Shown one piece after another: positions 136 through 28,194 of a stretch of 64,000 nucleotides of DNA. The stretch's first letter is position 1, and every line of letters begins with the position of its first letter. The notes under the pieces are model-generated. The model did no database searches, had not been told where the DNA came from, and worked only from the letters and a program-made list of their open reading frames with translations. Made by a program: the position numbers and the translations under genes. The DNA comes from Desulfomicrobium macestii (GTDB lineage: Bacteria > Desulfobacterota > Desulfovibrionia > Desulfovibrionales > Desulfomicrobiaceae): the NCBI RefSeq assembly GCF_014873765.1, contig NZ_JADBGG010000011.1:1-64000 (forward strand). The letters are read 5' to 3'.

Positions 136-903
136 TCATTCCTGGCACGCCGCCAAAAAATCATCCACGGCCCCAAGACCATCAGCGTCCATCAGATTGA
201 TGATGTGGCTGCCGATTACGGCCACGTCGGCCAGGCCGTCCAGCATGCGTACGTGCTCGGGCCGCGAGATGCCGAATCCGGCGGCGATGGGTAGACCGGC
301 CTTGGCTTTCAGCGCCTTGACGTAGTCGACCCCGGCCTGATCCATGCTTGTCCCCGCGCCCGTGATGCCGACCTTGAGCGTCGTGTAAAGAAGGCCCGAG
401 GCGCGTTCGAGAATGCCCGCCAGGCGTGGGGCCGGGGTGTCGGGGGAGATGACCATGATCGGGTGCAGACCTCTTTGTCGCGCGGCTTGCGCATAATCCC
501 CGTCCGCCTCGTCCCAGGGCAGGTCGGGCAGGATGGTTCCGCTGGCGCCGCTGGCCGCTGCCTTGTCGAGAAAGGCCTCCATGCCCAGCGCGTAGGGAAT
601 GTTGGCGTAGGTCATGAGCATGAAGGCCACGTCGAGTTCCCTGGATAAGGCCGCGCACAGTTCAAAGCAGTGCGCGGGGGTGATCCCTGCGTCCAGGGCG
701 GCCTGGTTGGCGCGCATGATGGTCGGCCCGTCGGCCAGGGGGTCGGTGAAGGGGATCTGGATTTCGACCAGCCGCACCCCTCTGCGGGCCATGAGGCGGA
801 TCAGGTCGGCGTTGACATTAAGGCTCGGGTATCCGGCCACCACATGGGTCATGAGCTGGATGCCCTTCGCCTCTTTGAGGGCCAGGTCGATTCTATTTTC
901 CAT
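136..903 (-). CDS. trpA: Tryptophan synthase alpha chain
   Basis: TrpA cleaves indole-3-glycerol phosphate to indole and glyceraldehyde 3-phosphate and passes indole to TrpB in the alpha2-beta2 cytosolic complex. The 255-residue product is slightly short for the family (about 260-270). The catalytic pair is visible as E47 in [15 protein letters not shown] and D58 in the same segment. The start at 903 is preferred over an upstream in-frame Met because a GAGG Shine-Dalgarno lies about seven bases before it. It overlaps the end of trpB by 11 bases, so translation is probably coupled. It is the last gene of the aro-trp operon. Only the extragenic palindrome follows, and no T-rich terminator is visible. 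Confidence 0.97.
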
Positions 904-2131
904 GACGTACCTCGTTTTCCAGAAAGGCAATCCAGTTTTCGCGGTCCAGTTCCATGGCCGTGATGAAGATGTCCTTGTCGCCCCGGCCTGAGATGTTGAC
1001 GATCATGATCTCGTCCCTGGGCAGCGTCGGGGCCAGTTCGATGGCCCGGGCCACGGCGTGGGAGGATTCAAGGGCCGGGATGATGCCTTCAAGGCGGGTC
1101 AGCCGCTTGAAGGCGTCCAGGGCTTTCACGTCGGTGATGGGCGAGAACTCAACGACGTTCTGATCGAACAGCCAGGCCAGCTCCGGTCCGACTCCCGCAT
1201 AATCGAGGCCCGCCGAGACCGAATGGGTGTCCTGCAGTTGTCCGCTCTCGTCCTGCAGGAAATAGCTCTTGTAGCCCTGCACGATGCCGACCTTGGGGCT
1301 GCCGCCGAAGCGGGCCGCGTTGTCGCCGATTTCGGGACCGCGCCCGCCCGCCTCCGCCCCGTGGAAGCGGATGCCCTTTTCCCCCAGGAAGGGGTGGAAG
1401 AGGCCGATGGAATTGGAGCCGCCGCCCACGCAGGCCACGAGATGGCTCGGCAGCCTGCCTTCGCGTTCCATGATCTGGGCGCGCGCTTCGCGGCCGATGA
1501 CGGACTGGAAGTCGCGCACCATGACCGGGTAGGGGAAGGGCCCCAGGGCCGAGCCCAGGATGTAGTGCGTATCCTTCAAATTCTGAATCCAGTATTTGAG
1601 CGTGGCGTTGACCGCGTCCTTCAGCGTCCGCGTGCCATCGGTGACCGGGACGACCTCGGCCCCCAGAAGCTTCATGGCGTAGACGTTGGGATACTGGCGG
1701 CGCACGTCCACCTCGCCCATGAAGACCTTGCACTCAAGGCCGAAGCGCGCCGCAACGGTGGCCGAGGCCAGCCCGTGCTGGCCCGCGCCCGTCTCGGCGA
1801 TGACCTTGGTCTTGCCCAGGCGTTTGGCCAGCAGGGCCTGGCCCAGGGCGTTGTTGATCTTGTGCGCGCCGGTGTGCGCCAGCCCTTCGAGTTTCAGGTA
1901 TATCTTGCAGCCGCCAAGCTCGCGGGTCAGATTTTCCGCGAAATAGAGGGGCGTGGGACGGCCGCAGTAGTTTTGGTACAGGTCGGCCAGTTCGGCCGTG
2001 AATTCGGGGTCGTCCTTGTATTTCAGGTAGCCCTGTTCCAGTTCCTCCAGGGCCGGGACAAGCATTTCCGGCACATAGCGCCCTCCATAAGGGCCGAAAT
2101 GGCGCGGGAGCATGTCTGATATCGTACTCAT
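893..2131 (-). CDS. trpB: Tryptophan synthase beta chain
   Basis: PLP-dependent condensation of indole with serine to tryptophan. The 412-residue product is of normal TrpB1 length. The PLP lysine is K91 in HTGAHKIN, and the phosphate-binding glycine loop GGGSNSIG is present. An upstream open frame continues to 2485 but lies inside trpF. The ATG at 2129-2131 gives the canonical N-terminus ([12 protein letters not shown]) and overlaps the trpF stop as ATGA, which points to translational coupling. Residues just before the PLP lysine read [11 protein letters not shown] where many TrpB have a REDLNHTGAHK-like stretch, a minor variation. The partner is TrpA, encoded next. Confidence 0.97.
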
Positions 2132-2742
2132 GGTTTTCCTCGCAGCAGTTGTAAGGCGTGGCGTATTTTTTCGTGATCCTTGATTCCGGGGGCGCTTTCC
2201 ACTCCGGAGTTCAGGTCGAACCCGGCCGCGCCGGTGGTTTTCATGACCGTCAGGTTGTGTGGGCCAAGGCCCCCGGCCAGGTACCAGGGATGGGGGCATT
2301 GCAGGCGTTGCAGATCCTTGGGGGCGAGGCTCTTGCCGTGTCCGCCGCCGCTTTTGCCGCTGTCCAGCAGAATGGCCCGGCAGGCCGGGGCAAAGAGCAG
2401 CATGTCCGCGGCCAGCCGCTCCACCGTTGGGTAACGCTCGGGCCACATGGTCTTGATGACTCGCTCTGGACCCAGGGCGAGGCATTGTTCCACGGTGTGC
2501 CCGCCGTGAAGCTGGAGCAGATCGAGGCCCGCCTTGGCGGCGATGGCCTGGATTTCCTCCACGCCCTGACGCACGAAGACTCCGGTCTTGAGGGCGCGGT
2601 TGGGCTTTTGGGCGGAGACCCAGTCCTGTGTGACGTTTCTGGGGCTCTCAAGATGAAAGATGAAGCCAAGCAGATCGATGCCGAGCGCGTCGCAAAATTC
2701 GACATCCTCCGCTCTGGTCATGCCGCAGACCTTGATGATCAT
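2128..2742 (-). CDS. trpF: Phosphoribosylanthranilate isomerase
   Basis: Amadori rearrangement of phosphoribosyl-anthranilate to CdRP, the fourth step of tryptophan synthesis. The 204-residue single-domain TIM barrel has the catalytic base C6 in KVCGMTR and the general acid D127 in [13 protein letters not shown]. It is a free-standing gene rather than the TrpC-TrpF fusion of enterobacteria. The start overlaps the trpC stop by four bases and the stop overlaps the trpB start by four bases, so it is embedded in a chain of coupled genes. Confidence 0.96.
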
Positions 2743-3512
2743 GATCGGCCTCCGCTCAGCCGGGCCAGGCCCAGACCGGGACTTTCGTGTTGCATGAGCG
2801 CCGTGCCGATGAGCAACGCGTCCAGGCCGGCAGCCTTGAGCCTGCTTACCTGTTCAGGGGTGCTTATGCCGCTGGCGCCGATCCAGATCTCTCCATCCTC
2901 CTTGCGTCGGACCATGTCCAGACAGCGACCAATGTCCGTGGTCAGCGTGTCCAGGTCGCGGTTGTTGACCTGGATGATGGTGCTCCCGATTTCCTTGGCC
3001 CTGTCCAGGTCGCGTTCATCGAAGACCTCGACCACCGGTTCAAGACCGCTTGTCAGGCACAGAGCGTGAAGTTGAGCCAGCTCGTCAAGGTCCTCGAACA
3101 TGCGCACGATGAGCAGGATGGCCGAGGCCGGAGTGGCCACGGTTGCCTCCACCTGCAGGGGATGGATGATGAAATCCTTGCGCAGCAGAGGCAGGCCCAG
3201 CGGTGCTACCTCCGACAGAAAGCCGAGGCTCCCCTTGAAATAGTTCGATTCCGTCAGGATCGAGAGGGCGCAGGCTCCGGCCTCTGCGTATCCCCGGCAG
3301 GCTTGCAGGGGCAGGACATCAAGATTGATGTCGCCCTTGGACGGGGAGGCGCGCTTGTACTCGGCGATGATCCCCGAGGTCCCGGGCCGGGTCAGGGCCG
3401 CGCCGAATTCGGGGCGGACGCCCTCATGCGGGATGTGCCTGTGCCCCGCGTCACGGAGGCGGATGAGTTCGTCGACTTCAGCTTGCTTGGCCCGGCGGAA
3501 TTTCTCAAGCAT
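2739..3512 (-). CDS. trpC: Indole-3-glycerol phosphate synthase
   Basis: Ring closure and decarboxylation of CdRP to indole-3-glycerol phosphate. The 257-residue monofunctional TIM barrel has the active-site signature IIAEYKRASPSKG with E51, K53 and K59, and the catalytic lysine K112 in LLRKDF. The motifs ILTE, NNRDL and the C-terminal LIGTALM are also present. The segment after the RKDF strand reads QVEATVATPASAILLI, which departs from the usual alanine/glycine-rich sequence but keeps the strand. It overlaps trpD by eight bases and trpF by four. Confidence 0.96.
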   Translation of the reverse strand: MLEKFRRAKQAEVDELIRLRDAGHRHIPHEGVRPEFGAALTRPGTSGIIAEYKRASPSKGDINLDVLPLQACRGYAEAGACALSILTESNYFKGSLGFLSEVAPLGLPLLRKDFIIHPLQVEATVATPASAILLIVRMFEDLDELAQLHALCLTSGLEPVVEVFDERDLDRAKEIGSTIIQVNNRDLDTLTTDIGRCLDMVRRKEDGEIWIGASGISTPEQVSRLKAAGLDALLIGTALMQHESPGLGLARLSGGRS

Positions 3513-4506
3513 GGAGCGCTCCGCCGAGGAGCCCTTGCTCCACTTTGGCTTGGGCCATTTCCATGGCCAGTTCCAGGGGCAGGTCGTCTTCCAGCAGGAA
3601 AAGGGCCACGCCCAGATTGAGGGTGACCATGTCCTGGAGGGATTTTGGTCCCTGTCCGGCCAGAACCTGGCGCTGGAGCTTCAGTGCATCTTCCTTGCTG
3701 TCGCAGGCCAGGTCCCTCGGGACGCAGGTGGAGAGTCCGAAATCCGCAGGGTCAATGACCGTCTCGCGGATCTTGCCGTGTTCCACGAAAATGACCTGAC
3801 CGGGTCCGCAGGGCGTCAGTTCGTCGAATCCGCCCGCGCCGTGCACGATGGCCGCGCGTTCGAGACCTTTTCTGGCCGCCAGCACCTGGGCGATCATGGG
3901 CGCGAATCGGAAGTCCGGCACGCCGAGAATCTGGTGGGTGGGCAGGGCCGGGTTCAAAAGCGGGCCCATGAGGTTGAAGATGGTGCGTACTCCCAGTTGC
4001 TGCCGTACCGGTCCCACGTGTTTGAAGGCCGGATGGAAATGCGGGGCGAAGAGGAAGACGAAATTGCGTCGCGCAAGCTCGTCCCTGACCGCTTCGGGGT
4101 CCGTGACCAGGGGGTAGCCCAGATCTTCGACCACGTCGGCGCTGCCGCATTTGCTCGACACGGCGCGGTTGCCGTGCTTGACGACCTGATAGCCCATGTC
4201 GGCCAGGAAAAAGGACACGGCCGTGGAGCAGTTGAAGCTCTGCTGCCCGTCTCCGCCCGTGCCGCAGGTGTCGATGCGCTTGCCCGAGAGCCCGGGGATG
4301 AGCCGGGCCTGTCCCAGGGCCGCATCCACGGCGGCCGAGAGTTCGGCGGCGGTTTCGCCCTTGGCCCGCAGGCCCATCAGAAAGGCCCCGGCCTGCACCG
4401 GGGAAACCGCGCCGGTCAGCAGGAGATCGAAAGCCTCCTTGGCCTGAATGCCGGAAAGATCGGCGCCCGTGGTCAGATATTCAAGAATATGGCTGATGGT
4501 GTTCAT
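3505..4506 (-). CDS. trpD: Anthranilate phosphoribosyltransferase
   Basis: Transfers phosphoribose from PRPP to anthranilate. The 333-residue product has the PRPP-binding loop DTCGTGGDG (about 79-87) and KHGNRAVSSKCGSAD (about 110-124), both diagnostic. It is a separate gene, not fused to the glutaminase domain, which is encoded three bases upstream as trpG. The C-terminus overlaps trpC by eight bases. Confidence 0.97.
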   Translation of the reverse strand: MNTISHILEYLTTGADLSGIQAKEAFDLLLTGAVSPVQAGAFLMGLRAKGETAAELSAAVDAALGQARLIPGLSGKRIDTCGTGGDGQQSFNCSTAVSFFLADMGYQVVKHGNRAVSSKCGSADVVEDLGYPLVTDPEAVRDELARRNFVFLFAPHFHPAFKHVGPVRQQLGVRTIFNLMGPLLNPALPTHQILGVPDFRFAPMIAQVLAARKGLERAAIVHGAGGFDELTPCGPGQVIFVEHGKIRETVIDPADFGLSTCVPRDLACDSKEDALKLQRQVLAGQGPKSLQDMVTLNLGVALFLLEDDLPLELAMEMAQAKVEQGLLGGALHA

Positions 4507-4509
4507 GGC

Positions 4510-5091
4510 TTACTCCGCTTGGATGTTGCACATTTTCAGGAAGTTGTTCAGCAGTTTCGGCCCTTCCGGCGTGAGCACGGATTCGGGGTGGAACTGCACG
4601 CCGACCCAGGGGCGGTCCTTGAAGGCCAGGGCCATGATCTCATTGTCTTCGGTGCGGGCGGTGACGGTGAAGGGCAGGTCCCCCTCCCCATGCACGGCCA
4701 GGGAATGGTAGCGGCCGATCTGCATCGGGTTTTGCACCCCTTCGAAAAGCCCGGTCCCGTCGTGTCGGATGTTTGAAGTCTTGCCGTGCATGATCCGCTG
4801 GGCCGCGCCCACGTTCACGCCGCTGTGATGCGACAGGGTCTGATGTCCGAGACACACGCCAAGGACCGGGACGCTGCGTGGCACCAGATCGAGAAACTTA
4901 AGGCACAGCCCCGTGTTGCGCGGATGGCTCGGGCCGGGGGAGATGATCGCTCCTTGCAGGCGCGGGTCCGTGGCCAGGGTCAGGATTTCCGGCTCGTTGT
5001 TACGAAGCACCAAGGGGTTTGCGCCCAAAGATTGGAAAACCTGAACCAGGTTGAAAGTAAACGAGTCAAAGTTGTCTATCAGTAAAATCAT
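4510..5091 (-). CDS. trpG: Anthranilate synthase component II (glutamine amidotransferase)
   Basis: Class I glutaminase that supplies ammonia to TrpE. The 193-residue product has the nucleophile C80 in GVCLGHQ and the His-Glu of the triad at H168 and E170 in FHPES. The oxyanion segment SPGPSHP is at about 51-57. The start lies 26 bases inside the end of trpE, so the two subunits are probably translated in a coupled, stoichiometric manner. The stop is three bases before trpD. The same protein could also serve PabB in folate synthesis, but nothing here tests that. Confidence 0.96.
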   Translation of the reverse strand: MILLIDNFDSFTFNLVQVFQSLGANPLVLRNNEPEILTLATDPRLQGAIISPGPSHPRNTGLCLKFLDLVPRSVPVLGVCLGHQTLSHHSGVNVGAAQRIMHGKTSNIRHDGTGLFEGVQNPMQIGRYHSLAVHGEGDLPFTVTARTEDNEIMALAFKDRPWVGVQFHPESVLTPEGPKLLNNFLKMCNIQAE

Positions 5092-6478
5092 CTCCGCCTC
5101 CGGTGCTGGTGATGGCCTTCAAAATCGCCCTGGCCTTGTTGTGGCACTCCTGCCATTCCTTTTCGGGGTCCGAATCAAAGACCAGCCCCGCCCCCGCCTG
5201 CCAGTTGATTTGGCCGTTTTCCACCCACAGGGAGCGGATGGTGATGCCTGTATCCAGATTAACCTGCCCCTGGTCCAGGCCGATCCAGCCGATACCGCCT
5301 GCATAGGGGCCGCGATCGAGCTTCTCTTCGTCCGCGATGATCTGCATGGCCCGGATCTTGGGCGCTCCGGAGACCGTCCCGGCCGGGAACCCGGCCTTCA
5401 AGACGTCGATGGCGTCAAGGCCCTCGGCCAAGTGCGCCGAGAGGTAGGAGGTCAGGTGCATGACATGGGAGAATCGTTCGACCTGCATGTACTTGTCGAC
5501 GTGCACCGTGCCGGGGGCGGCGATGCGGCCGAGGTCGTTGCGCCCCAGGTCCACGAGCATGACGTGTTCGGCCCGCTCCTTCTCGTCGCCCAGCAGCTCC
5601 TCGGCCAGGGCCTGATCCTCGGCCTCGGTGGCGCCGCGTACGCGGGTCCCGGCGATGGGTCGCAATTGCAGGAGACCGTCCTCGCAGCGGATGAGCAGCT
5701 CCGGAGACGAGCCCATGATGGTCAGGTCCCCGAAGGACATGAAGAAGGTGTACGGGGATGGATTGATCTGCCGCAGCCGTCTGTAAAGCTCGAAGGCGGA
5801 GCCGGAAAACGGCGCGCTGAAGCGGGTCGAGAGCACGATCTGGATGGCCTCGCCCTGGGTGATCAGCTCCTTGGCCCGGCAAACGCGGCGCAGGAATTCG
5901 TCCTGGTTCGGCGTGGTGGTGATGGCCCCGACGACCGGAGGGGCAGGCGTGCTCGGACGCTGGCAGCCGTTCAGGTTGGTGGAGGAATCCAGTGTCAGAT
6001 AGCAGCAGCGGTGGTGCAGGTGATCGAAGAGGATGACCTTGCCCGGCAGGACCATGATGGAGCGCGCTTCTTCGGGCGGCAGCTTGTCGGCAAGCGCCGG
6101 CTCGAAGATGCCGCCCATGTTGTAGGCCATGTAGCCGCACACGCTTCTGGTCACCGCCGGAAGCGGGCCCAGATTTTCGGGGCCGGTGACGGTCAGTTCG
6201 GCCAGGCAGGCGCGCAGCCCGGAAACGTAATCCTGGCCGCTGAATTCCTTCAGGCCGTGCAGGCGCGGGTCGTAGCTCTGGACGTCGAGCTTGCCGGAGA
6301 CGCAGGACAGGATCAGCCGAAAATCCCAGCCGATGAGGCTGTAACGGCCAAGCCGTCCGTCCACTTCGGTGCTCTCAAGGAGAAATCCCTGCTTTTCGCG
6401 CACCAGCGTCAGATACAGGGAGATGGGCGTCTGTGTGTCCGCCGGGAGCCAGGTCCCCTGTTGGGGTAGGATGATCAT
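5066..6478 (-). CDS. trpE: Anthranilate synthase component I
   Basis: Converts chorismate and ammonia to anthranilate. The 470-residue product has the N-terminal LLES element of the tryptophan feedback site (LLESTEVDGRLGRYSLIG) and the chorismate-binding motifs PIAGTRVRG, LVDLGRNDLGR and GTVSGAPKIRAM. The sequence predicts feedback inhibition by Trp. The ATG has a good Shine-Dalgarno, TGGAGG, about four bases upstream. Only about 33 bases separate it from an intrinsic terminator, too little room for a promoter, so trpE must be transcribed through that terminator from the upstream aro genes. Confidence 0.97.
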   Translation of the reverse strand: MIILPQQGTWLPADTQTPISLYLTLVREKQGFLLESTEVDGRLGRYSLIGWDFRLILSCVSGKLDVQSYDPRLHGLKEFSGQDYVSGLRACLAELTVTGPENLGPLPAVTRSVCGYMAYNMGGIFEPALADKLPPEEARSIMVLPGKVILFDHLHHRCCYLTLDSSTNLNGCQRPSTPAPPVVGAITTTPNQDEFLRRVCRAKELITQGEAIQIVLSTRFSAPFSGSAFELYRRLRQINPSPYTFFMSFGDLTIMGSSPELLIRCEDGLLQLRPIAGTRVRGATEAEDQALAEELLGDEKERAEHVMLVDLGRNDLGRIAAPGTVHVDKYMQVERFSHVMHLTSYLSAHLAEGLDAIDVLKAGFPAGTVSGAPKIRAMQIIADEEKLDRGPYAGGIGWIGLDQGQVNLDTGITIRSLWVENGQINWQAGAGLVFDSDPEKEWQECHNKARAILKAITSTGGGDDFTDRQL

Positions 6479-6586: not shown

Positions 6587-7366
6587 TCAGGAAGCGGGTC
6601 CCCCTGCGTCATGCTGCTTGCGCCACCACCAAAGAGCCTTCTGGCTCAAGAGTTCCAGATCGCCGCCGGCAGCGACGTTCAGGTATGAACGGAATATGCG
6701 CACGGCCTCAAGGCTGTGCGGATTTGCTTCGAACATGGTGGAGAAGAGGGGAGCGTCCTGGGTGATCATTTTCGTGGCCGCCTCCATGCGTCGCCCGAAC
6801 GAGGGCGTGAAGAAACGCTCGATTCCGTTTTCCAGAGGGGAAGCACAGAGATAAGCGACGGTGGTCACGAAGTTGAGTCCTTGGATGTAGGCCATGGCTT
6901 GGTCATGCTCATCGGCCGTGGTGTTGAACGGGGAGAATCCCAGCGAGCGGAGGCAGTCTGATAGATTATCGCTTGCCTCTTGGTCACGCCCCACGGTTAC
7001 GGCAATACGCAGCTCCGCGTCAAGTGTTCCGGGCCCGAAAAGTGGATGGGTGCCGACCACGGGCGTCGTGGTCAGCGCCAGCATTTCGCGCAGGGGCTGG
7101 ACCTTGACCGAGCAGATGTCGGCCAGGATGCAATCCTGCGTAAGATACGGCGCTATCGCCTGGGTGACATCCTTGACCGCCGTGATGGGCACGCACAAGA
7201 GGACCAGCGCGGCGGTGCGTACGGCCTCGGGCAGGGCGGCAAGGTCCAGCGGGTGGTCGAATTCCGTGACGGGATTTCTCGCCTCGCGAAAGCGCTGCGC
7301 AAACCGCGCGCCCATCTGCCCCTTGGCACCGATGATCACGATGGGCGATGCCGGGCTAAGCCTCAT
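6587..7366 (-). CDS. tyrA: Prephenate dehydrogenase
   Basis: NAD(P)-dependent oxidative decarboxylation of prephenate to 4-hydroxyphenylpyruvate in tyrosine synthesis. The 259-residue product starts with a Rossmann loop GAKGQMG (13-19). It carries the substrate/catalytic segment GTHPLFGPG with H107, and has no fused mutase or ACT domain. The ATG at 7366 has a GGAGAAG ribosome site; a TTG twelve bases upstream is less likely. It overlaps aroA by 11 bases. The C-terminus contains W246-W247-W248, encoded by three consecutive TGG codons just before the trpE attenuator-like terminator. These codons may double as the sensing codons of that element. Confidence 0.93.
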   Translation of the reverse strand: MRLSPASPIVIIGAKGQMGARFAQRFREARNPVTEFDHPLDLAALPEAVRTAALVLLCVPITAVKDVTQAIAPYLTQDCILADICSVKVQPLREMLALTTTPVVGTHPLFGPGTLDAELRIAVTVGRDQEASDNLSDCLRSLGFSPFNTTADEHDQAMAYIQGLNFVTTVAYLCASPLENGIERFFTPSFGRRMEAATKMITQDAPLFSTMFEANPHSLEAVRIFRSYLNVAAGGDLELLSQKALWWWRKQHDAGGPAS

Positions 7367-8702
7367 GAGCTTCTCCAAGACCGTTGCCGAGGCGAACCTT
7401 GCCCCAGACGTCCCAGAATCCGGGAAAGGATTTGGCCACGCAGGACGGGTTGTCGAGGTGAACGCCGATGCCGCCCAGTTCGAGAATGGCGAAGCTCATG
7501 GCCATGCGGTGGTCGCCGTGGGTGAGCATGTCCACGTCGCGGGGCAGGAGTCCGCCGTTGCCGCGAATGACCATGCCGTCGGGCCGGGCCTCAATGTTCA
7601 CGCCTGCCTTGGACAGCTCCGTGACCGGGCCCTGGATGCGGTCGCATTCCTTCAGAGTCAGATGCGCGGCACCGGAGATGACCGTTTCCCCGGTGGCGAA
7701 GGCGGCCATGGCCGCAACCGTGGGCACGATATCGGGGCAGGCGTTCATGTCGACGTGCACGCCGTGCAGCGCGGATGGAAAAACCGTGACCACGTCATCG
7801 GTCCATTCGATGCGCGCTCCCATGCGGGTCAGGATCTCAAGCATGAAGCGGTCGCCCTGGGCCGAGGATGGGTTCAGCCCGGAGATGCGCACCGGAGCGA
7901 CGCCGACGGCTCCGGCCGCCAGAAAGTAGGATGCATTGGACCAGTCGCCTTCCACGCGCATGGCTCCGGCGCGGTAGGGCGCCGGATGGACGATGAGACG
8001 GATGTCCGTGGGGGGCAGATCTGCGGCCTCGGCGTGGGCGCAAGGCTGCCAGTCGTCGAGGATCCGGCGTTCCAGTATCACGGGCACGCCGAAGCGGGCC
8101 ATGGTGTCGAGGGTCAGGGCGACATAGGGCCAGGAGGCCACGGACTTGCCGATCAGCCGGATGGTCGTCGTCCCGGTCGCCAGGGGTGCGGCCAGGAGCA
8201 GGCCCGAGAGGTACTGGCTGCTCTGTTCCAGATTGATGGTCACCTCGCCGCCGGACAGGCCGGGGCTGGACATGACCAGGGGCGGGTAGCCGTCCTTTTC
8301 CTCGAAGGTGACGCGCACTCCCTGGCGGGTCAGGGCGTCGGTCAGGTGCGAGACGGGTCGGTCGTGCATGCGCCCCTCGCCGAAAATACGGTAAATGCCG
8401 GTGATGGCCGTGACCACGGCGGCCATGAGCCGGCAGGTGGTGCCGGACTCTCCGACGTTCATGGAGACCGGCTCGGATGCGTCTGGCCGCGACGCCGCGC
8501 CGATGCCGTGCACGAAGAGCTTGTCTTCCCGGGGTTCGATCGTCGCGCCGAGCAGGCGCAGACACTCGGCGGTGCGGGTCAGGTCCTGGCTGTCGAGCAC
8601 CCCTTCAAGCAGGGAGTCCCCTGTGGCCAGGGCCGCGCAGATGAGTGCCCGGTGCGACAGGGACTTGGATGAAGGCGCGGTGATGCGGATGAGCGGGTTC
8701 AT
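7356..8702 (-). CDS. aroA: 3-phosphoshikimate 1-carboxyvinyltransferase (EPSP synthase)
   Basis: Transfers enolpyruvyl from PEP to shikimate 3-phosphate, the sixth shikimate-pathway step. The 448-residue product has the N-terminal substrate site TAPSSKSLSHRA with K13, S14 and R18. The PEP-site loop reads NVGESGTTCRLM, a variant of the usual GNAGTxxR/GNSGTTxR loop. The start at 8702 overlaps the pheA stop as ATGA, and a longer upstream open frame lies wholly inside pheA. The loop variant could matter for inhibitor binding, but that cannot be decided here. Confidence 0.95.
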   Translation of the reverse strand: MNPLIRITAPSSKSLSHRALICAALATGDSLLEGVLDSQDLTRTAECLRLLGATIEPREDKLFVHGIGAASRPDASEPVSMNVGESGTTCRLMAAVVTAITGIYRIFGEGRMHDRPVSHLTDALTRQGVRVTFEEKDGYPPLVMSSPGLSGGEVTINLEQSSQYLSGLLLAAPLATGTTTIRLIGKSVASWPYVALTLDTMARFGVPVILERRILDDWQPCAHAEAADLPPTDIRLIVHPAPYRAGAMRVEGDWSNASYFLAAGAVGVAPVRISGLNPSSAQGDRFMLEILTRMGARIEWTDDVVTVFPSALHGVHVDMNACPDIVPTVAAMAAFATGETVISGAAHLTLKECDRIQGPVTELSKAGVNIEARPDGMVIRGNGGLLPRDVDMLTHGDHRMAMSFAILELGGIGVHLDNPSCVAKSFPGFWDVWGKVRLGNGLGEAHEA

Positions 8703-9817
8703 GAGGACTCCTGGGTTATGCCTGCGCCGTAGAGGTGCGGGCCCGTAGGATAGCTGCCGAGCACGCGCATGGTGTGGCAGAGGCTGGTCAGATGCTTCAT
8801 GGTGTTCTCGTACTGCTCCTGGGACAGGTCGCATTCCACGTCCATGAAGAAGACGTATTTCCACTTTTCGCCCTTGAGCGGCCTCGACTCCAGTTTGGTC
8901 AGGTTGAGCCCCTGGTCGGCCAGGAGGTTCAGGATGGCGGCCAGTGCGCCGGGCTTGTCCGGAGTGGTGAAGAGCAGCGACGTCTTGTCGCGGCTGCTGC
9001 CCACCGTCGGCGTGGGGCCGATGACCAGAAAGCGGGTCCAGTTGTCGGGCAGGTCCTGGATGTCCAGGGCCACGGCCTTGAGTCCATAGCGCTCCACCAG
9101 ACGCGGATGGCCGATGGCGGCGGAACCCTCGCCCTCGCGCTCGGCCTGGGCTGCCGCCGCTGCGGTGCTCTCGGTGGGGACGACGACGGCCTGGGGTACG
9201 TTGGTGCGCAGCCAGCCCGAGCACTGGGCCAGGGCCTGGGGGTGGGAATAGACCGTGCGCACCGATGCCAGATCGGCGTTTGTGGCCAGCAGCGCGTGGC
9301 TTATGCGGCTGAAAAGTTCGGCGTGGATATAGACGTTGTATTGCAGAAAGAGGTCCAGGCTCTGGCCGACGCTGCCCTGCAGGGAGTTTTCAAGCGGGAT
9401 CACGCCAAGGTCGGCCTTGCGCGAGGCCACGGTCAGAAAGACGTCGTGCAGGGTCGGGCAGGGCGAGAAGTCCATGGAGCGGCCGAGGTATTCAAGGCCC
9501 GCCAGATGCGTGAAGGTCCCTTCGGGGCCGAGGTAGGCCACGGTCTGGGGCTGCTGCAGGCGGCGCGAGGAGGACAGGATCTCGCGGTAGATGGCGCGCA
9601 GGTGGTCTTCGGGCAGGATGCCGGGGCTTAACGCATTCAGCCGGTTCAGGACCTCCTTTTCGCGAAAGGGCTTGAAGACGATGTCCAGGGAATCGGACTT
9701 GAGCTGGCCCACCTCGCGGCTCAGGGAGGCGCGCCGATTGAGCAGGCCCAGGAGTTGTTCGTCCAGGTCGTCGATCTGGGTCCGGATCTCGGTCAGACGC
9801 TGCGTGGATGCGCTCAT
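8699..9817 (-). CDS. pheA: Chorismate mutase / prephenate dehydratase (P-protein)
   Basis: Bifunctional enzyme for chorismate to prephenate to phenylpyruvate. The 372-residue product has an AroQ-type chorismate mutase domain at about 1-85, a prephenate dehydratase domain at about 92-270 with the catalytic TRFLVIG at 261-267, and a C-terminal ACT domain at about 278-365. The ACT domain has the GALA and ESRP phenylalanine-binding motifs (290-293, 310-313). Allosteric inhibition by phenylalanine is therefore expected. The ATG at 9817 overlaps the previous stop by four bases. An in-frame extension upstream lies inside the preceding gene and is not used. Confidence 0.96.
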   Translation of the reverse strand: MSASTQRLTEIRTQIDDLDEQLLGLLNRRASLSREVGQLKSDSLDIVFKPFREKEVLNRLNALSPGILPEDHLRAIYREILSSSRRLQQPQTVAYLGPEGTFTHLAGLEYLGRSMDFSPCPTLHDVFLTVASRKADLGVIPLENSLQGSVGQSLDLFLQYNVYIHAELFSRISHALLATNADLASVRTVYSHPQALAQCSGWLRTNVPQAVVVPTESTAAAAAQAEREGEGSAAIGHPRLVERYGLKAVALDIQDLPDNWTRFLVIGPTPTVGSSRDKTSLLFTTPDKPGALAAILNLLADQGLNLTKLESRPLKGEKWKYVFFMDVECDLSQEQYENTMKHLTSLCHTMRVLGSYPTGPHLYGAGITQESS

Positions 9818-10782
9818 TCCTTGATCTCCTCGGTGATGCGCATGCCGAAATGCCTTCCTGCCTGATCCGTGCGGCACAGCACCTTGTCTCCGGCCTTGAG
9901 GTCGACCACGCTGACAGGGCGGCCGTCGGTCCGCACCATGCGGATGGTCTCGGCGTTTTGCAGGAAGAGGGTTCCCATTTTCCCGTTGCACTCGGCCTCG
10001 ATGAGCAGCATGGGCCGGATTTCGACCTTGCAGCGGCCCACCGTGGCCAGGGTGGTGGAGCCGTCGGCGCCGACGATGAGCACTTCGGTGCCGGTCTTGA
10101 GTTCATCGAGATACGTGGTCCTGTCCCCGGGCATGGCGGCATAGGCGTGCACGGCCCCGGCATTGATTCGGAACGGGCGGGGCGCCACGTAGGGGTTGGA
10201 CTCGGTTTCGGCGTTGATGAGGAAGGTGAAGGCGCTCGAATTGCCGACCAGCATGCCCTGACCGGATTTCAAAAGACTCATGGTGTCCACGCAGACACGG
10301 TGGCCGAGCCCGGCGGAGGTGACGGCGGTGATGGTCGCGGTTTCCAGTTCCATGGTTCCCTGGCTCAGTTTGAGTTCACGCACGATGGTCTTGAGATCCT
10401 CGGCCGCGCCGGGCAGGACGACGACGGTTTCGACCCCTCGCTCAAGGATGCCGGCGGCCAGCCTGGCGCGGTCGAGGCTGGCGGCTTCAACGGCCAGGCG
10501 GTCGGACTGGGCCAGGATGTTTTCCACGGGAATGATCTCCCAGCCTTCACGCAGGATGACTTCCCTGCCCTGGCCCAGGAGACGCACGGCCTCTTCCTCG
10601 TCGGCCTTGGAGGACAGGAGCACATAGGGCTGGTCTTCGGCGGCCAGGACCTGGATCTTGCTCAGCGCTTGCACGGAGGCGACATGCTCGCGTTCGACAA
10701 TGACCGCGTCCACGCCGGATTCCAGAGCCAGGGTGATTTCCCCCTTGTCGAAGGGGACGCCGGAAAAGAGTACTTTTTTCAT
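9814..10782 (-). CDS. 3-dehydroquinate synthase II (AroB-prime type)
   Basis: This 322-residue protein belongs to the archaeal-type DHQ synthase family, unrelated to classical AroB. It oxidatively deaminates and cyclises 2-amino-3,7-dideoxy-D-threo-hept-6-ulosonate to 3-dehydroquinate with NAD. It is recognised by overall sequence (N-terminus MKKVLFSGVPFDKGEI, C-terminal CRTDQAGRHFGMRITEEI) and by its position immediately after its partner, ADTH synthase. It overlaps pheA by four bases. The pair replaces AroF/G/H and AroB, an arrangement known in methanogens and in Desulfovibrio. No classical aroB or DAHP synthase occurs in this window. Confidence 0.92.
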   Translation of the reverse strand: MKKVLFSGVPFDKGEITLALESGVDAVIVEREHVASVQALSKIQVLAAEDQPYVLLSSKADEEEAVRLLGQGREVILREGWEIIPVENILAQSDRLAVEAASLDRARLAAGILERGVETVVVLPGAAEDLKTIVRELKLSQGTMELETATITAVTSAGLGHRVCVDTMSLLKSGQGMLVGNSSAFTFLINAETESNPYVAPRPFRINAGAVHAYAAMPGDRTTYLDELKTGTEVLIVGADGSTTLATVGRCKVEIRPMLLIEAECNGKMGTLFLQNAETIRMVRTDGRPVSVVDLKAGDKVLCRTDQAGRHFGMRITEEIKE

Positions 10783-10791
10783 GACACTGGC

Positions 10792-11598
10792 CTAGAGTTT
10801 GGGTTCTTCGAGCAGCGCCAGGGCCTGTTCGACGGAGTAATCCATGTGCACCACGGCGTGCAGGGCCTGGACGAGCCGGGTCGGATCTTCGGCCTGGAAG
10901 ATGTTGCGTCCCATGGACAGGCCCGCGCCACCCGCGCTGATGGAGTCGTGGGCCATCTGGATGATGTCGCGCGGGGAGTCCATGCGCGGTCCGCCGGCAA
11001 TGACGATGGGGATGCAGCAGCCTTCGGTCACCCTGGCAAAGGATTCGGGATCGCCGGTGTAGACGACCTTGATCACGTCGGCGCCCAGTTCTTCGGCCAG
11101 ACGTGCGCAGTGCGCCACGGTCGCCGGATCCCATTCGGATTTGACCTTGGGGCCTCGTGCGTAGACCATGGCCAAAAGCGGCATGCCCCATTCGGCGCAC
11201 TTGGAGGCGACCTGGCCCATGTCGCGCAGCATGTCGCGTTCGGACTCGTCACCGAGGTTGAGGTGCACGGACACCGCGTCGGCGCCAAGCTTGATTCCGT
11301 CCTCGACTGTCCCGACCAGGATCTTGGCGTTGGGGAAGGGAGAGAGGGTGGTGCTGGCCGACAGATGGATGATGAGGCCCACGTCGCGGCCATGACCCCG
11401 GTGCGAGCAGCGCGGCAGACCTTTGTGCATGAGCACCGCGTTGGCGCCGCCCTCGGCCACTTTGTTCACCGTGGAGCGCAGGTCCACCAGACCGTGGATG
11501 GGGCCGACGGTGGTTCCGTGGTCCAGGGGCACGATGATGCTGCGGCCCGTGTTGCGGTTGAAGATTCTTTCCAGCCTGACGCTTTTTCCCATGTTCAT
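10792..11598 (-). CDS. 2-amino-3,7-dideoxy-D-threo-hept-6-ulosonate (ADTH) synthase
   Basis: A class I aldolase of the FbaB/ADTH synthase family. It condenses a 6-deoxy-5-ketofructose phosphate unit with aspartate semialdehyde to start the alternative shikimate route. The 268-residue TIM barrel has D26 in VPLDHGTT, Y146 in MVYARGP and the Schiff-base lysine K177 in DVIKVVYTG. The C-terminal phosphate-binding segments GGPR and GLSMGRNIFQ are present. The ATG at 11598 follows GGAGG at good spacing; a second ATG two codons on is possible. It is the first structural gene of the aromatic operon, preceded by a leader peptide and an attenuator. Confidence 0.92.
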   Translation of the reverse strand: MNMGKSVRLERIFNRNTGRSIIVPLDHGTTVGPIHGLVDLRSTVNKVAEGGANAVLMHKGLPRCSHRGHGRDVGLIIHLSASTTLSPFPNAKILVGTVEDGIKLGADAVSVHLNLGDESERDMLRDMGQVASKCAEWGMPLLAMVYARGPKVKSEWDPATVAHCARLAEELGADVIKVVYTGDPESFARVTEGCCIPIVIAGGPRMDSPRDIIQMAHDSISAGGAGLSMGRNIFQAEDPTRLVQALHAVVHMDYSVEQALALLEEPKL

Positions 11599-11641: not shown

Positions 11642-11675
11642 AAAAAAGGGCCGCCGGCGTATTGCCTGCGGCCCT
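11642..11675 (-). terminator. Aromatic operon attenuator (terminator with competing antiterminator)
   Basis: On the minus strand GGGCCGC (11674-11668) pairs with GCGGCCC (11654-11648), extended by GGC/GCC across an A-G mismatch, and is followed by six T residues (11647-11642). The 5' arm AGGGCCGCAGGC (11675-11664) can instead pair with GCCTGTGGTCT (11728-11718) in the upstream leader peptide gene, as 11 consecutive pairs including three G-U. The two structures exclude each other. Ribosome stalling at the aromatic codons just upstream would leave the antiterminator segment free and allow read-through into the aro-trp operon. Both pairings are seen in the sequence; the regulation is inferred. 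Confidence 0.87.
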
Positions 11676-11701
11676 AAGGTTGGTTTGCTTCGTCAAAAAG
11701 G

Positions 11702-11788
11702 CTAAAGCAGTCCCCTCAGACCACAGGCTCTGCTAAAATAAAAGTACCAAAAAAAGTACAGGCTGTGATTGAGGGAGAAGTTTGTCAT
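11702..11788 (-). CDS. Aromatic amino acid leader peptide (attenuation)
   Basis: A 28-codon frame (ATG at 11788-11786, TAG at 11704-11702) encodes a peptide with F4 and then eight consecutive aromatic residues at 11-18, YFFWYFYF. All three aromatic amino acids are represented (3 Tyr and 1 Trp, with Phe most frequent). The peptide is followed 27 bases after its stop by an intrinsic terminator, itself about 45 bases before the first gene of the aromatic operon. The ribosome site is weak (AGG about ten bases upstream). This is the architecture of trpL/pheL-type leaders, but sensing three amino acids for a combined Phe-Tyr-Trp operon. It is too short for routine gene calling. Confidence 0.88.
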   Translation of the reverse strand: MTNFSLNHSLYFFWYFYFSRACGLRGLL

Positions 11789-11800
11789 AACGATTGCCTG

Positions 11801-11828
11801 ATTACTCAGTTTGTCCGAAGGCTGTCAA
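11801..11828 (-). promoter_or_regulatory. Likely sigma-70 promoter of the aromatic operon
   Basis: A perfect -35 TTGACA (11828-11823) is followed after 16 bases by AGTAAT (11806-11801), four of six matches to TATAAT. The predicted start falls about 6-8 bases before the leader peptide ATG, which would make the leader mRNA nearly leaderless. That proximity is a reason for caution. Confidence 0.5.
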
Positions 11829-11836
11829 GAATTTTT

Positions 11837-11851
11837 ATGACCGCCGGTCAT
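11837..11851. promoter_or_regulatory. Palindrome immediately upstream of the aromatic promoter
   Basis: ATGACCGCCGGTCAT is a perfect 7+1+7 palindrome flanked by T5 on both sides. It ends nine bases before the -35 box of the aromatic operon promoter. Its place suits an activator or repressor operator. On the plus strand the following T-rich stretch also makes it a weak terminator-like hairpin. No gene on either side explains it. Confidence 0.4.
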
Positions 11852-11981: not shown

Positions 11982-12467
11982 ATGGCCGCCAGGAACGCAA
12001 TGCCCGGAGTGATCCGGAAAATCTGTCTGTGCTGTCAGGGCGGGAGCCCGAAATTTGTCAGGGAGTGCGAGCATGTCCTGTGCCCGCTGCATTCGTGCAG
12101 GATGATCGAGGACGGGGAGGACACCGCTCTGCAGAGTTGTATTTCGGCTTTTTGTCTGGCCTGCGCGGGTAGTGCCGAGGCGGTGGCCGATTGCAGCGCG
12201 AACGTTCCCATCGGCGCGCAACCGCCATGTCCGGCTCATCCTTTCCGCATGCCCGCAGAGGCTCCTCCGGAGCAACAGGTCCGCCCTTTGCCTGGCCTTG
12301 GCGCAGTCCCGGAGCGGCTTGCGAAGTCAGGCGCCCGTGGGAATGCGCGAATTTTGGAATCCGTAGCGGATGATTTGCCAAGGGTTTCGGTGACATTGGA
12401 CCAGTCTCGTCATGAAGGGCTGGCGGGCATTTCACCCGGGCGTGCGCCCGAAGCGTTGGATATTTGA
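11982..12467 (+). CDS. Hypothetical protein with two tandem Cys-rich CLxCxG repeats
   Basis: This 161-residue protein has no recognised function. Its N-terminal half holds two copies of one pattern. The first is CLCCQGGSPKFVRECxxxxCPLHSCR (about residues 15-40), the second CLACAGSAEAVADC then CPAHPFR (about 57-88). The shared form is C-x2-C-x-G, a serine, V-x2-C, a spacer, then CP-x(3-4)-R, suggesting one metal-binding unit per repeat (zinc or iron-sulfur; inference). The C-terminal half is low in distinctive features. The ATG at 11982 has AAGGAGAGG upstream; a longer frame from 11859 lacks such a site. It appears coupled to the next small gene. Confidence 0.6.
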   Translation: MAARNAMPGVIRKICLCCQGGSPKFVRECEHVLCPLHSCRMIEDGEDTALQSCISAFCLACAGSAEAVADCSANVPIGAQPPCPAHPFRMPAEAPPEQQVRPLPGLGAVPERLAKSGARGNARILESVADDLPRVSVTLDQSRHEGLAGISPGRAPEALDI

Positions 12468-15469: not shown

Positions 15470-15545
15470 TGGTGCCGGGGGACAGAGTTGAACTGCCGAC
15501 ACGGGGATTTTCAGTCCCCTGCTCTACCGACTGAGCTACCCCGGC
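15470..15545 (-). tRNA. tRNA-Phe (GAA), copy 1
   Basis: A 76-base cloverleaf including an encoded CCA. Acceptor GCCGGGG pairs with CCCCGGC, the anticodon loop reads CTGAAAA with anticodon GAA, and the T loop is TTCAACT. It is identical in sequence to the second copy at 15737-15812. Confidence 0.97.
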
Positions 15546-15703
15546 TCGACGGAAGACCGTTACTATGGAAATCGGCCTGCTTTGGCAAGCTAAAAAATGG
15601 GATTTGCAAAATTTGTGGTCGGGAGGGGCCGTCGGCAGGGGTCGATGAGTCGCCGGCACATCCGAAAGGTCGATGACGTTTCGTGCCGGGCTCGGCAGAA
15701 AAG

Positions 15704-15726
15704 AAAAAAGGCCGCGTAATGCGACC
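15704..15726 (-). terminator. Terminator of the upstream tRNA-Phe copy
   Basis: The same GGTCGC/GCGGCC hairpin with six T residues as at 15438-15460, placed ten bases beyond the CCA end of the second tRNA-Phe. Each copy therefore has its own terminator. Confidence 0.8.
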
Positions 15727-15736
15727 TTTGATTTCA

Positions 15737-15812
15737 TGGTGCCGGGGGACAGAGTTGAACTGCCGACACGGGGATTTTCAGTCCCCTGCTCTACCGACTG
15801 AGCTACCCCGGC
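15737..15812 (-). tRNA. tRNA-Phe (GAA), copy 2
   Basis: A 76-base tRNA with encoded CCA and anticodon GAA, identical to the copy at 15470-15545. It was presumably produced by the local duplication that also copied the terminator. Confidence 0.97.
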
Positions 15813-15969
15813 AACGTGTGGTGAGAGGTGCTTTTATGCAAAGGCGATGGCGAAGGCAAGAGGGAATTTTGTACTTTCCGAATTTCCTTCGTTTTGTTCA
15901 AACCAACTTCCGGCAGCAGGGCTGCCGGCGTGAAGATTGGTCCGCGCCCCGCAATTAAATTCATCAGGA

Positions 15970-16046
15970 TGGCCCGCCCTGCATGATTCGAACATGCGAC
16001 CAACGGATTCGAAGTCCGGTACTCTATCCAGCTGAGCTAAGGGCGG
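15970..16046 (-). tRNA. tRNA-Arg (TCG)
   Basis: A 77-base tRNA with encoded CCA. Acceptor CCGCCCT pairs with AGGGCGG with G as discriminator. The anticodon loop CTTCGAA gives anticodon TCG, reading CGA (and other CGN by wobble), and the T loop is TTCGAAT. The outermost anticodon-stem pair is a mismatch. A small membrane-protein gene lies nine bases upstream and probably shares the transcript. Confidence 0.93.
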
Positions 16047-26305: not shown

Positions 26306-26381
26306 GCTGGCGTAGCTCAACTGGTAGAGCAGCTGATTTGTAATCAGCAGGTTGCGGGTTCAAGTCCCATCGCCAGCTCCA
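26306..26381 (+). tRNA. tRNA-Thr (TGT)
   Basis: A 76-base cloverleaf with encoded CCA. Acceptor GCTGGCG pairs with CGCCAGC, the anticodon loop is TTTGTAA with anticodon TGT, and the T loop is TTCAAGT. It is the first of the tRNA trio before tuf. Confidence 0.97.
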
Positions 26382-26387
26382 GGTGAT

Positions 26388-26473
26388 GGAGGGGTTCCCG
26401 AGTGGCCAAAGGGAACAGACTGTAAATCTGTCGGCGTACGCCTTCGGAGGTTCAAATCCTCCCCCCTCCACCA
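26388..26473 (+). tRNA. tRNA-Tyr (GTA)
   Basis: An 86-base class II tRNA with a long variable arm and encoded CCA. Acceptor GGAGGGG pairs with CCCCTCC; anticodon GTA lies in the loop CTGTAAA. Six bases separate it from tRNA-Thr. Confidence 0.97.
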
Positions 26474-26538
26474 AGAAGAAGCCGTGAAAACCAGTAGGAG
26501 ACAGAGATCATGCTGTCGCCTGACTACTGAGATGAAAT

Positions 26539-26614
26539 GCGGGAGTAGCTCAATGGCTAGAGCATCAGCCTTCCAAGCTGAGGGTTGCGGGTTCGAGTCC
26601 CGTTTCCCGCTCCA
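26539..26614 (+). tRNA. tRNA-Gly (TCC)
   Basis: A 76-base tRNA with encoded CCA. Acceptor GCGGGAG pairs with the 3' TTCCCGC side (one G-T), and the anticodon loop CTTCCAA gives TCC. The order Thr-Tyr-Gly-tuf resembles the classical tRNA-tufB operon. Confidence 0.96.
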
Positions 26615-26719
26615 TTTCCTCGTCTCACCAGTCTTGCGCCTCCATTTTTCCTCATCTCTTCTTAAGTAGCATTCACTTATACATATATAGTAATTCGTAA
26701 TTTTATTAGGGGGTAATGT

Positions 26720-27913
<1,194 letters not shown>

Positions 27914-27916
27914 AGA

Positions 27917-28066
27917 ATGCGCATTAATATCCTTCTTGCTTGTGGTGATTGCAAGCGTAGAAACTACGCTACCCAGAAGAACAAAAAGAACACGACTACG
28001 AAGCTTGAGCTGAGCAAATTCTGTCCTTTTTGCGGAAAGCACACGAAGCATCGCGAATCTAAATAG
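27917..28066 (+). CDS. rpmG: 50S ribosomal protein L33
   Basis: A 49-residue zinc-type L33 with C9, C12, C36 and C39 (ACGDC and FCPFCG). Its ATG lies three bases after the tuf stop with no clear ribosome site in the gap beyond GTGGAG in the tuf end. It is easily missed because of its length. Confidence 0.96.
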
Positions 28067-28118
28067 TGTAATGCGGATGCTGCCCAAGCAGCATCTGCAT
28101 TGAAAATTTCCCTCACGC

Positions 28119-28194
28119 AGGCCAGTAGCTCTAACGGTAGAGCATCGGACTCCAAATCCGAGGGCTGGGGGTTCGAATCCCTCCTGGCCTGCCA
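28119..28194 (+). tRNA. tRNA-Trp (CCA)
   Basis: A 76-base tRNA with encoded CCA. Acceptor AGGCCAG pairs with CTGGCCT; the anticodon loop CTCCAAA gives CCA. It is embedded between rpmG and secE, as in many bacteria. Confidence 0.97.

What the first reader, a model, noticed from the sequence alone, without database searches (positions are those of the whole stretch)
11642..11828. Leader peptide with eight consecutive Tyr/Phe/Trp codons and mutually exclusive terminator/antiterminator before the aromatic operon
A 28-codon frame has YFFWYFYF at codons 11-18. GCCTGTGGTCT in codons 21-24 can form 11 pairs with the 5' arm of an intrinsic terminator that precedes the first aro gene. Classical leaders sense one or two amino acids; this one carries codons for all three and controls an operon that makes all three. 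This would be a single switch for Phe, Tyr and Trp supply ahead of the alternative shikimate genes. Sequence elements are directly seen; the mechanism follows the established trp/phe attenuation model.
Basis: partly seen in the sequence, partly recalled or inferred. Interest (0 to 1): 0.88.

Follow-up and report, generated by a model that had tools for sequence, protein, structure and literature searches.

The report
Leader peptide sensing three aromatic amino acids
In front of the genes that make phenylalanine, tyrosine and tryptophan in this sulfate-reducing bacterium lies a small RNA switch that appears to measure the supply of all three amino acids by translating a tiny peptide; relatives carry the same switch with its codons changed to match the genes it precedes.

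Summary
Leader ORF 11788-11702 (MTNFSLNHSLYFFWYFYFSRACGLRGLL) carries YFFWYFYF at codons 11-18. GCCTGTGGTCT (codons 21-24) makes 11 pairs with the 5' arm of an intrinsic terminator ahead of ADTH synthase-DHQS II-pheA-aroA-tyrA-trpEGDCFBA. The best explanation is a ribosome-mediated transcription attenuator responding to Phe, Tyr and Trp together.

Comparative tests support this. In 147 ADTH synthase copies the leader, the antiterminator pairing (matched vs permuted, z = -8.7) and the terminator recur across families of Desulfovibrionales and in Desulfobacterales MAGs. All 54 scorable leaders ahead of an operon holding trp genes contain Phe, Tyr and Trp codons. Genomes lacking trpE mostly lack the leader Trp codon (8 of 10), and split-off trp operons have their own WWW leaders. 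Monocistronic ADTH synthase paralogs have Phe-only or Phe/Tyr leaders, some Tyr-only, with the switch RNA kept. Most leaders start 35-40 nt after a conserved TTGACA without a Shine-Dalgarno, so they are probably leaderless transcripts.

This is a new variant of a known kind. A putative attenuator was listed for the same operon in D. vulgaris in 2005, without a leader peptide. Nothing is shown experimentally.

The parts
11837..11851 (.). Palindrome ATGACCGGCGGTCAT just upstream of the -35; possible operator of an unknown regulator
   Evidence: Conserved in most of the seven aligned Desulfomicrobium-group sequences; no other exact copy in the genome, two copies with 1 mismatch
11823..11828 (-). 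-35 element TTGACA
   Evidence: Invariant in 7 Desulfomicrobium-group sequences; TTGAC found at a set distance from the leader ATG across genera
11799..11804 (-). Putative -10 (TAATCA); TA at a conserved offset from TTGACA
   Evidence: TA 23-24 nt after the start of TTGACA in nearly all scored loci; weak hexamer, not found by the consensus scan
11702..11788 (-). Leader peptide ORF, 28 aa: MTNFSLNHSLYFFWYFYFSRACGLRGLL
   Evidence: conserved in relatives
11735..11758 (-). Control codons 11-18: YFFWYFYF
   Evidence: aromatic composition follows operon content
11763..11775 (-). Segment 1 (protector) CCCUCAAUCACAG, codons 5-9
   Evidence: MFE and centroid fold; 1:2 duplex p = 0.015
11713..11728 (-). 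Segment 2: GCCUGUGGUCU (antiterminator 5' strand, 11728-11718), extending to UGAGGG for pairing with segment 1
11664..11675 (-). Segment 3: AGGGCCGCAGGC, shared by antiterminator and terminator
11642..11675 (-). Intrinsic terminator stem-loop plus U6 tract
   Evidence: invariant core
10792..11598 (-). ADTH synthase (2-amino-3,7-dideoxy-D-threo-hept-6-ulosonate synthase)
   Evidence: TIGR01949 384.7 bits, cut-off 299
9814..10782 (-). 3-dehydroquinate synthase II
   Evidence: NF002628 590.7 bits, PF01959
8699..9817 (-). PheA: chorismate mutase/prephenate dehydratase
7356..8702 (-). AroA (EPSP synthase)
   Evidence: TIGR01356
6587..7378 (-). TyrA-like prephenate dehydrogenase
   Evidence: below curated cut-offs
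136..6478 (-). trpE, G, D, C, F, B, A

Best explanation
This is a ribosome-mediated transcription attenuator for the whole aromatic operon. Transcription starts at or a few bases before the leader AUG, and a ribosome translates the leader behind RNA polymerase. If charged tRNA-Phe, -Tyr or -Trp is short, the ribosome stalls in codons 11-17. That covers segment 1 and leaves segment 2 (codons 21-24) free to pair with segment 3, the 5' arm of the terminator, so polymerase reads into the operon. If all three are plentiful, the ribosome runs through codons 19-28 and covers segment 2; after release segments 1 and 2 pair. The terminator then forms and transcription stops. Sequence elements, alternative pairings, their conservation and the match between control codons and downstream genes are shown here. 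Stalling, termination and read-through are inferred.
For: Leader, alternative structures and terminator are present. Terminator found in 116 of 126 scored leader regions. Antiterminator duplex stronger than shuffles at p <= 0.05 in 88 of 111. Compensatory changes occur, e.g. GCCUG/CAGGC becomes GCCAG/CUGGC in L089 and L135, and GUCAG/CUGGC in L213. Among 66 representatives below 80% identity, matched duplexes average -19.5 against -17.4 permuted, z = -8.7, none of 5000 permutations as low. All 54 leaders scored ahead of trp-containing operons carry F, Y and W; 24 of 64 without trp genes carry W. Genomes without trpE: 8 of 10 scorable leaders lack W. Split trp operons carry WW/WWW leaders. In Humidesulfovibrio paralogs YWYYWF became DGFFGF while FSRACG...C* and the terminator stayed. 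Leaders use TTT/TAT for 77% of Phe/Tyr codons against 27% in the adjacent gene. Stall simulation for the window: antiterminator probability 0.91 with the A site at codons 11-17, 0-0.4 at codons 18-28.
Against: No expression data. In the simulation ribosome-free nascent RNA up to segment 3 already favours the antiterminator (0.91) over the protector (0.02) for the window, and the model behaves differently for L086 and L170. The protector hairpin is individually significant in only 44 of 111 loci. A ribosome at codon 18 partly masks segment 2 and one on the stop codon largely unmasks it, so not all eight codons can be equal. The tree-based independent-pairs test has only 4 well-supported pairs (about 3 agree, 0 oppose; not significant). 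Trp codons persist in 24 of 64 leaders without trp genes downstream, and in trpE-less G164.
Confidence: 0.88

Rival explanations
1. The leader peptide is a nascent-chain arrest sensor (like TnaC or ErmL): the peptide in the exit tunnel with a free ligand stalls the ribosome, rather than empty A-site codons.
For: Short, translated, conserved ORF with a conserved C-terminal motif RACGxxG.
Against: The conserved C-terminal residues are explained by RNA pairing: GCC UGU GGx pairs with the terminator arm and covaries with it. The residues before the run and the order of aromatic residues are free to vary, while their identity follows the genes controlled.
Confidence: 0.04
2. A protein or small-molecule RNA sensor (TRAP-like, T-box-like or riboswitch) uses the alternative hairpins; the ORF is incidental.
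For: Alternative hairpins exist without a ribosome.
Against: No Rfam match at gathering score or convincingly below it. The reading frame and aromatic codons are kept over strongly diverged DNA, and codon identity changes with gene content.
Confidence: 0.03
3. Control is mainly by a transcription factor at the conserved palindrome 11837-11851; the leader is secondary.
For: Conserved palindrome next to the -35.
Against: It was seen in the Desulfomicrobium group only and is absent in L004; the leader system is conserved far beyond that group.
Confidence: 0.05

Closest known systems
E. coli trp and pheA attenuators (trpL, pheL)
   Same: Leader peptide with control codons, three mutually exclusive hairpins, intrinsic terminator ahead of the operon (own knowledge)
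   Different: They read Trp or Phe alone; this leader reads Phe, Tyr and Trp and precedes common-pathway plus all three terminal-branch genes
E. coli ilvGMEDA attenuator (ilvL)
   Same: One leader with codons for three amino acids made by one operon (own knowledge)
   Different: Branched-chain, not aromatic; unrelated sequence
Putative attenuator ahead of the D. vulgaris aroA'-aroB'-pheA-aroF-tyrA-trp supraoperon (PMC1173090, Table 7)
   Same: Same operon type with nearly the same gene order
   Different: Only a predicted terminator/antiterminator was listed; the term 'leader peptide' does not occur in that paper, and it does not describe aromatic codons, conservation or paralogs
C. glutamicum aroF leader (Phe-Tyr-Phe; PMC4046766)
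   Same: Aromatic leader peptide at the first shikimate-pathway enzyme
   Different: DAHP synthase, single gene, no Trp codon reported
S. meliloti trpL (PMC7298713)
   Same: Leader transcript starts at the AUG (leaderless)
   Different: Trp only

Membership tests
Ribosome-mediated transcription attenuator | Short translated ORF with a run of codons for the end products | tested here: met
   translation inferred from frame conservation and codon bias
Ribosome-mediated transcription attenuator | Intrinsic terminator between leader ORF and first gene | tested here: met
   116 of 126
Ribosome-mediated transcription attenuator | Antiterminator mutually exclusive with the terminator, with covariation | tested here: met
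Ribosome-mediated transcription attenuator | Protector (1:2) hairpin | tested here: inconclusive
   Strong in the window; p <= 0.05 in 44 of 111 loci
Ribosome-mediated transcription attenuator | Stall position on control codons decides which hairpin forms | tested here: inconclusive
   Simulation agrees for the window and several others, not for L086
Ribosome-mediated transcription attenuator | Read-through rises when the amino acid is limiting | not testable with these tools
   Needs experiment
Rfam Trp_leader / Phe leader families | Match to the covariance model | tested here: not met
   No such match at gathering or up to E = 10
Leaderless mRNA | 5' end at the AUG, no Shine-Dalgarno | tested here: inconclusive
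   ATG 35-40 nt after TTGACA in 82 loci, SD-like in 14 of 82 vs 27 of 33 for longer spacings, Fisher 1e-10; 5' ends not mapped

The most novel reading that the evidence does not exclude
Desulfobacterota use one modular attenuator whose control codons are re-written by evolution to fit the genes behind it: all three aromatics for the full operon, Trp only for split trp operons, and Phe-only or Phe/Tyr (in some copies Tyr-only) for duplicated ADTH synthases. That would be a codon-level counterpart of the E. coli AroG/AroF/AroH isoenzyme division of labour, mostly on leaderless transcripts.
Probability: 0.7. Interest if true: 0.72.

Novelty: new variant of a known kind. Interest (0 to 1): 0.62.

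Why it matters
It would be a single translation-based switch for an entire aromatic supply chain, including the alternative (ADTH) entry to the shikimate pathway. The many natural variants form a ready experiment on how ribosome stalling sets operon output, on how attenuators are retuned after gene duplication or pathway loss, and on leaderless translation in sulfate reducers.

Tried and rejected
Rfam search found nothing relevant. The consensus promoter scan missed the promoter. The strict rule 'Trp codon only if trp genes follow' was tested and rejected as absolute: W persists in 24 of 64 leaders without trp genes, which fits the common pathway still feeding Trp. The phylogenetically independent-pairs test was underpowered. 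The palindrome was followed to its two near copies, with no shared promoter logic evident. The automatic terminator scan appears to have picked a second, downstream terminator in several Desulfobacterales loci (L092, L137): in the printed sequence GGTCTGC in the leader can pair with GCAGACC in an earlier terminator, which would explain their poor duplex scores; this was seen by eye only. Literature searches for a described leader peptide at this operon found none in the held library.

Full report
Observation. The elements lie on the minus strand. Leader ORF 11788-11702 encodes MTNFSLNHSLYFFWYFYFSRACGLRGLL. Segment 2 (GCCTGTGGTCT, 11728-11718) can make 11 pairs with segment 3 (AGGGCCGCAGGC, 11675-11664), which is also the 5' arm of an intrinsic terminator with a U6 tract. 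The whole leader folds as a long protector hairpin (CCCUCA-A-AUCACAG with CUGUGGU-C-UGAGGG) plus the terminator.

Operon. NCBIfam identifies ADTH synthase (TIGR01949) and dehydroquinate synthase II (NF002628) first, then PheA, AroA, TyrA and the trp genes. DHQ dehydratase, shikimate dehydrogenase, shikimate kinase and chorismate synthase were not seen in this cluster. The closest named relatives are Desulfomicrobium MAGs, so the window is probably Desulfomicrobium.

Conservation. 147 ADTH synthase copies were examined with their upstream regions. An aromatic-rich ORF with at least 7 aromatic codons in 10 is present in 92, against 0 on the reverse strand. A terminator follows in 116 of 126 scored. 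The antiterminator pairing beats shuffles at p <= 0.05 in 88 of 111. It covaries: position 4 is U-A, C-G, U-G or A-U; permuting partners lowers pairing (z = 5.4); and with 66 representatives below 80% identity the matched duplexes are stronger than in all 5000 permutations (z = -8.7). Relatedness above that cut is not otherwise corrected. The protector hairpin is less uniform.

Codon content follows gene content. All 54 scored leaders of trp-containing operons have F, Y and W; four further rows are inner copies of tandem ADTH synthase pairs and have no leader of their own. Aromatic operons without trp genes have F and Y and often W. In genomes where trpE is elsewhere, that trp operon usually has its own leader with WW or WWW. 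Of fifteen at least 90%-complete genomes of the order without trpE, twelve have an ADTH synthase; ten of these have a scorable leader (G229 weakly) and eight of the ten lack W. The exceptions are G164 and the fragmented MAG G007. Against 71 of 74 leaders with W in sampled trpE-bearing genomes, counted by hand, Fisher p = 2e-7; relatedness is not corrected. The window's own genus gives a clean case: G005 and G014 have ADTHS-DHQS-PheA-AroA-TyrA without trp genes and leaders with Tyr and Phe but no Trp (L149, L163).

Paralogs. Additional ADTH synthase copies without aromatic genes downstream have Phe-only leaders (FFFFFFF, FFSFFFFF), Tyr-only leaders (YYYY) or mixed Phe/Tyr leaders, or no leader. 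In the tree the Phe-only type appears in at least three places and most Tyr-rich leaders group together. In Humidesulfovibrio the orphan leader is visibly homologous to the operon leader: YWYYWF has become DGFFGF while FSRACG, the C-terminus, stop and terminator are kept. That is retuning after duplication. Inspection of ORFs next to several orphans showed no aromatic genes.

Start. TTGACA with TA 23-24 nt after its start is found in almost all leaders scored. The leader ATG lies 35-40 nt after the start of TTGACA in 82 of 116, with C before A of the ATG in 32 of 34 loci at spacing 37. SD-like sequence is seen in 14 of these 82 against 27 of 33 leaders with longer spacing (Fisher 1e-10). Most leaders are therefore probably leaderless; S. 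meliloti trpL is a known precedent. In the window the spacing is 40.

Mechanism. With a simple footprint model the window's antiterminator is open when the A site is at codons 11-17 and closed at codons 18-28. Aromatic codons are strongly biased to TTT and TAT. Stalling, termination and regulation were not measured.

Known. E. coli trpL, pheL and ilvL (own knowledge), C. glutamicum aroF, and a 2005 table listing a putative attenuator for the D. vulgaris operon are the closest. No description of this leader was found in the held literature, which misses most subscription papers.

Noticed in passing
11837-11851: Palindrome ATGACCGGCGGTCAT next to the -35, conserved in most of the aligned Desulfomicrobium-group sequences; no other exact copy in the genome.
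   Followed up: partly
11982-12467 (+): Divergently oriented cysteine-rich ORF with no Pfam or NCBIfam match; may not be a gene.
   Followed up: partly
L226-L232, L241, L243-L248: trp operons separate from the aromatic operon are preceded by short ORFs with WWW or WWWW runs, apparently classical trp attenuators not examined further here.
   Followed up: partly
L095, L100, L154, L155: Two ADTH synthase genes in tandem at the head of the full operon; only the first has a leader.
   Followed up: no
L161, L166, L128, L190, L214: Further ADTH synthase copies with no recognisable leader; in L161 an MltG-like gene seems to follow (read by eye).
   Followed up: no
L092, L137: Two terminator-like hairpins in a row between leader and ADTH synthase; the first could be the one controlled.
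   Followed up: no
15473-16046 and 26306-28191: Groups of tRNA genes.
   Followed up: no
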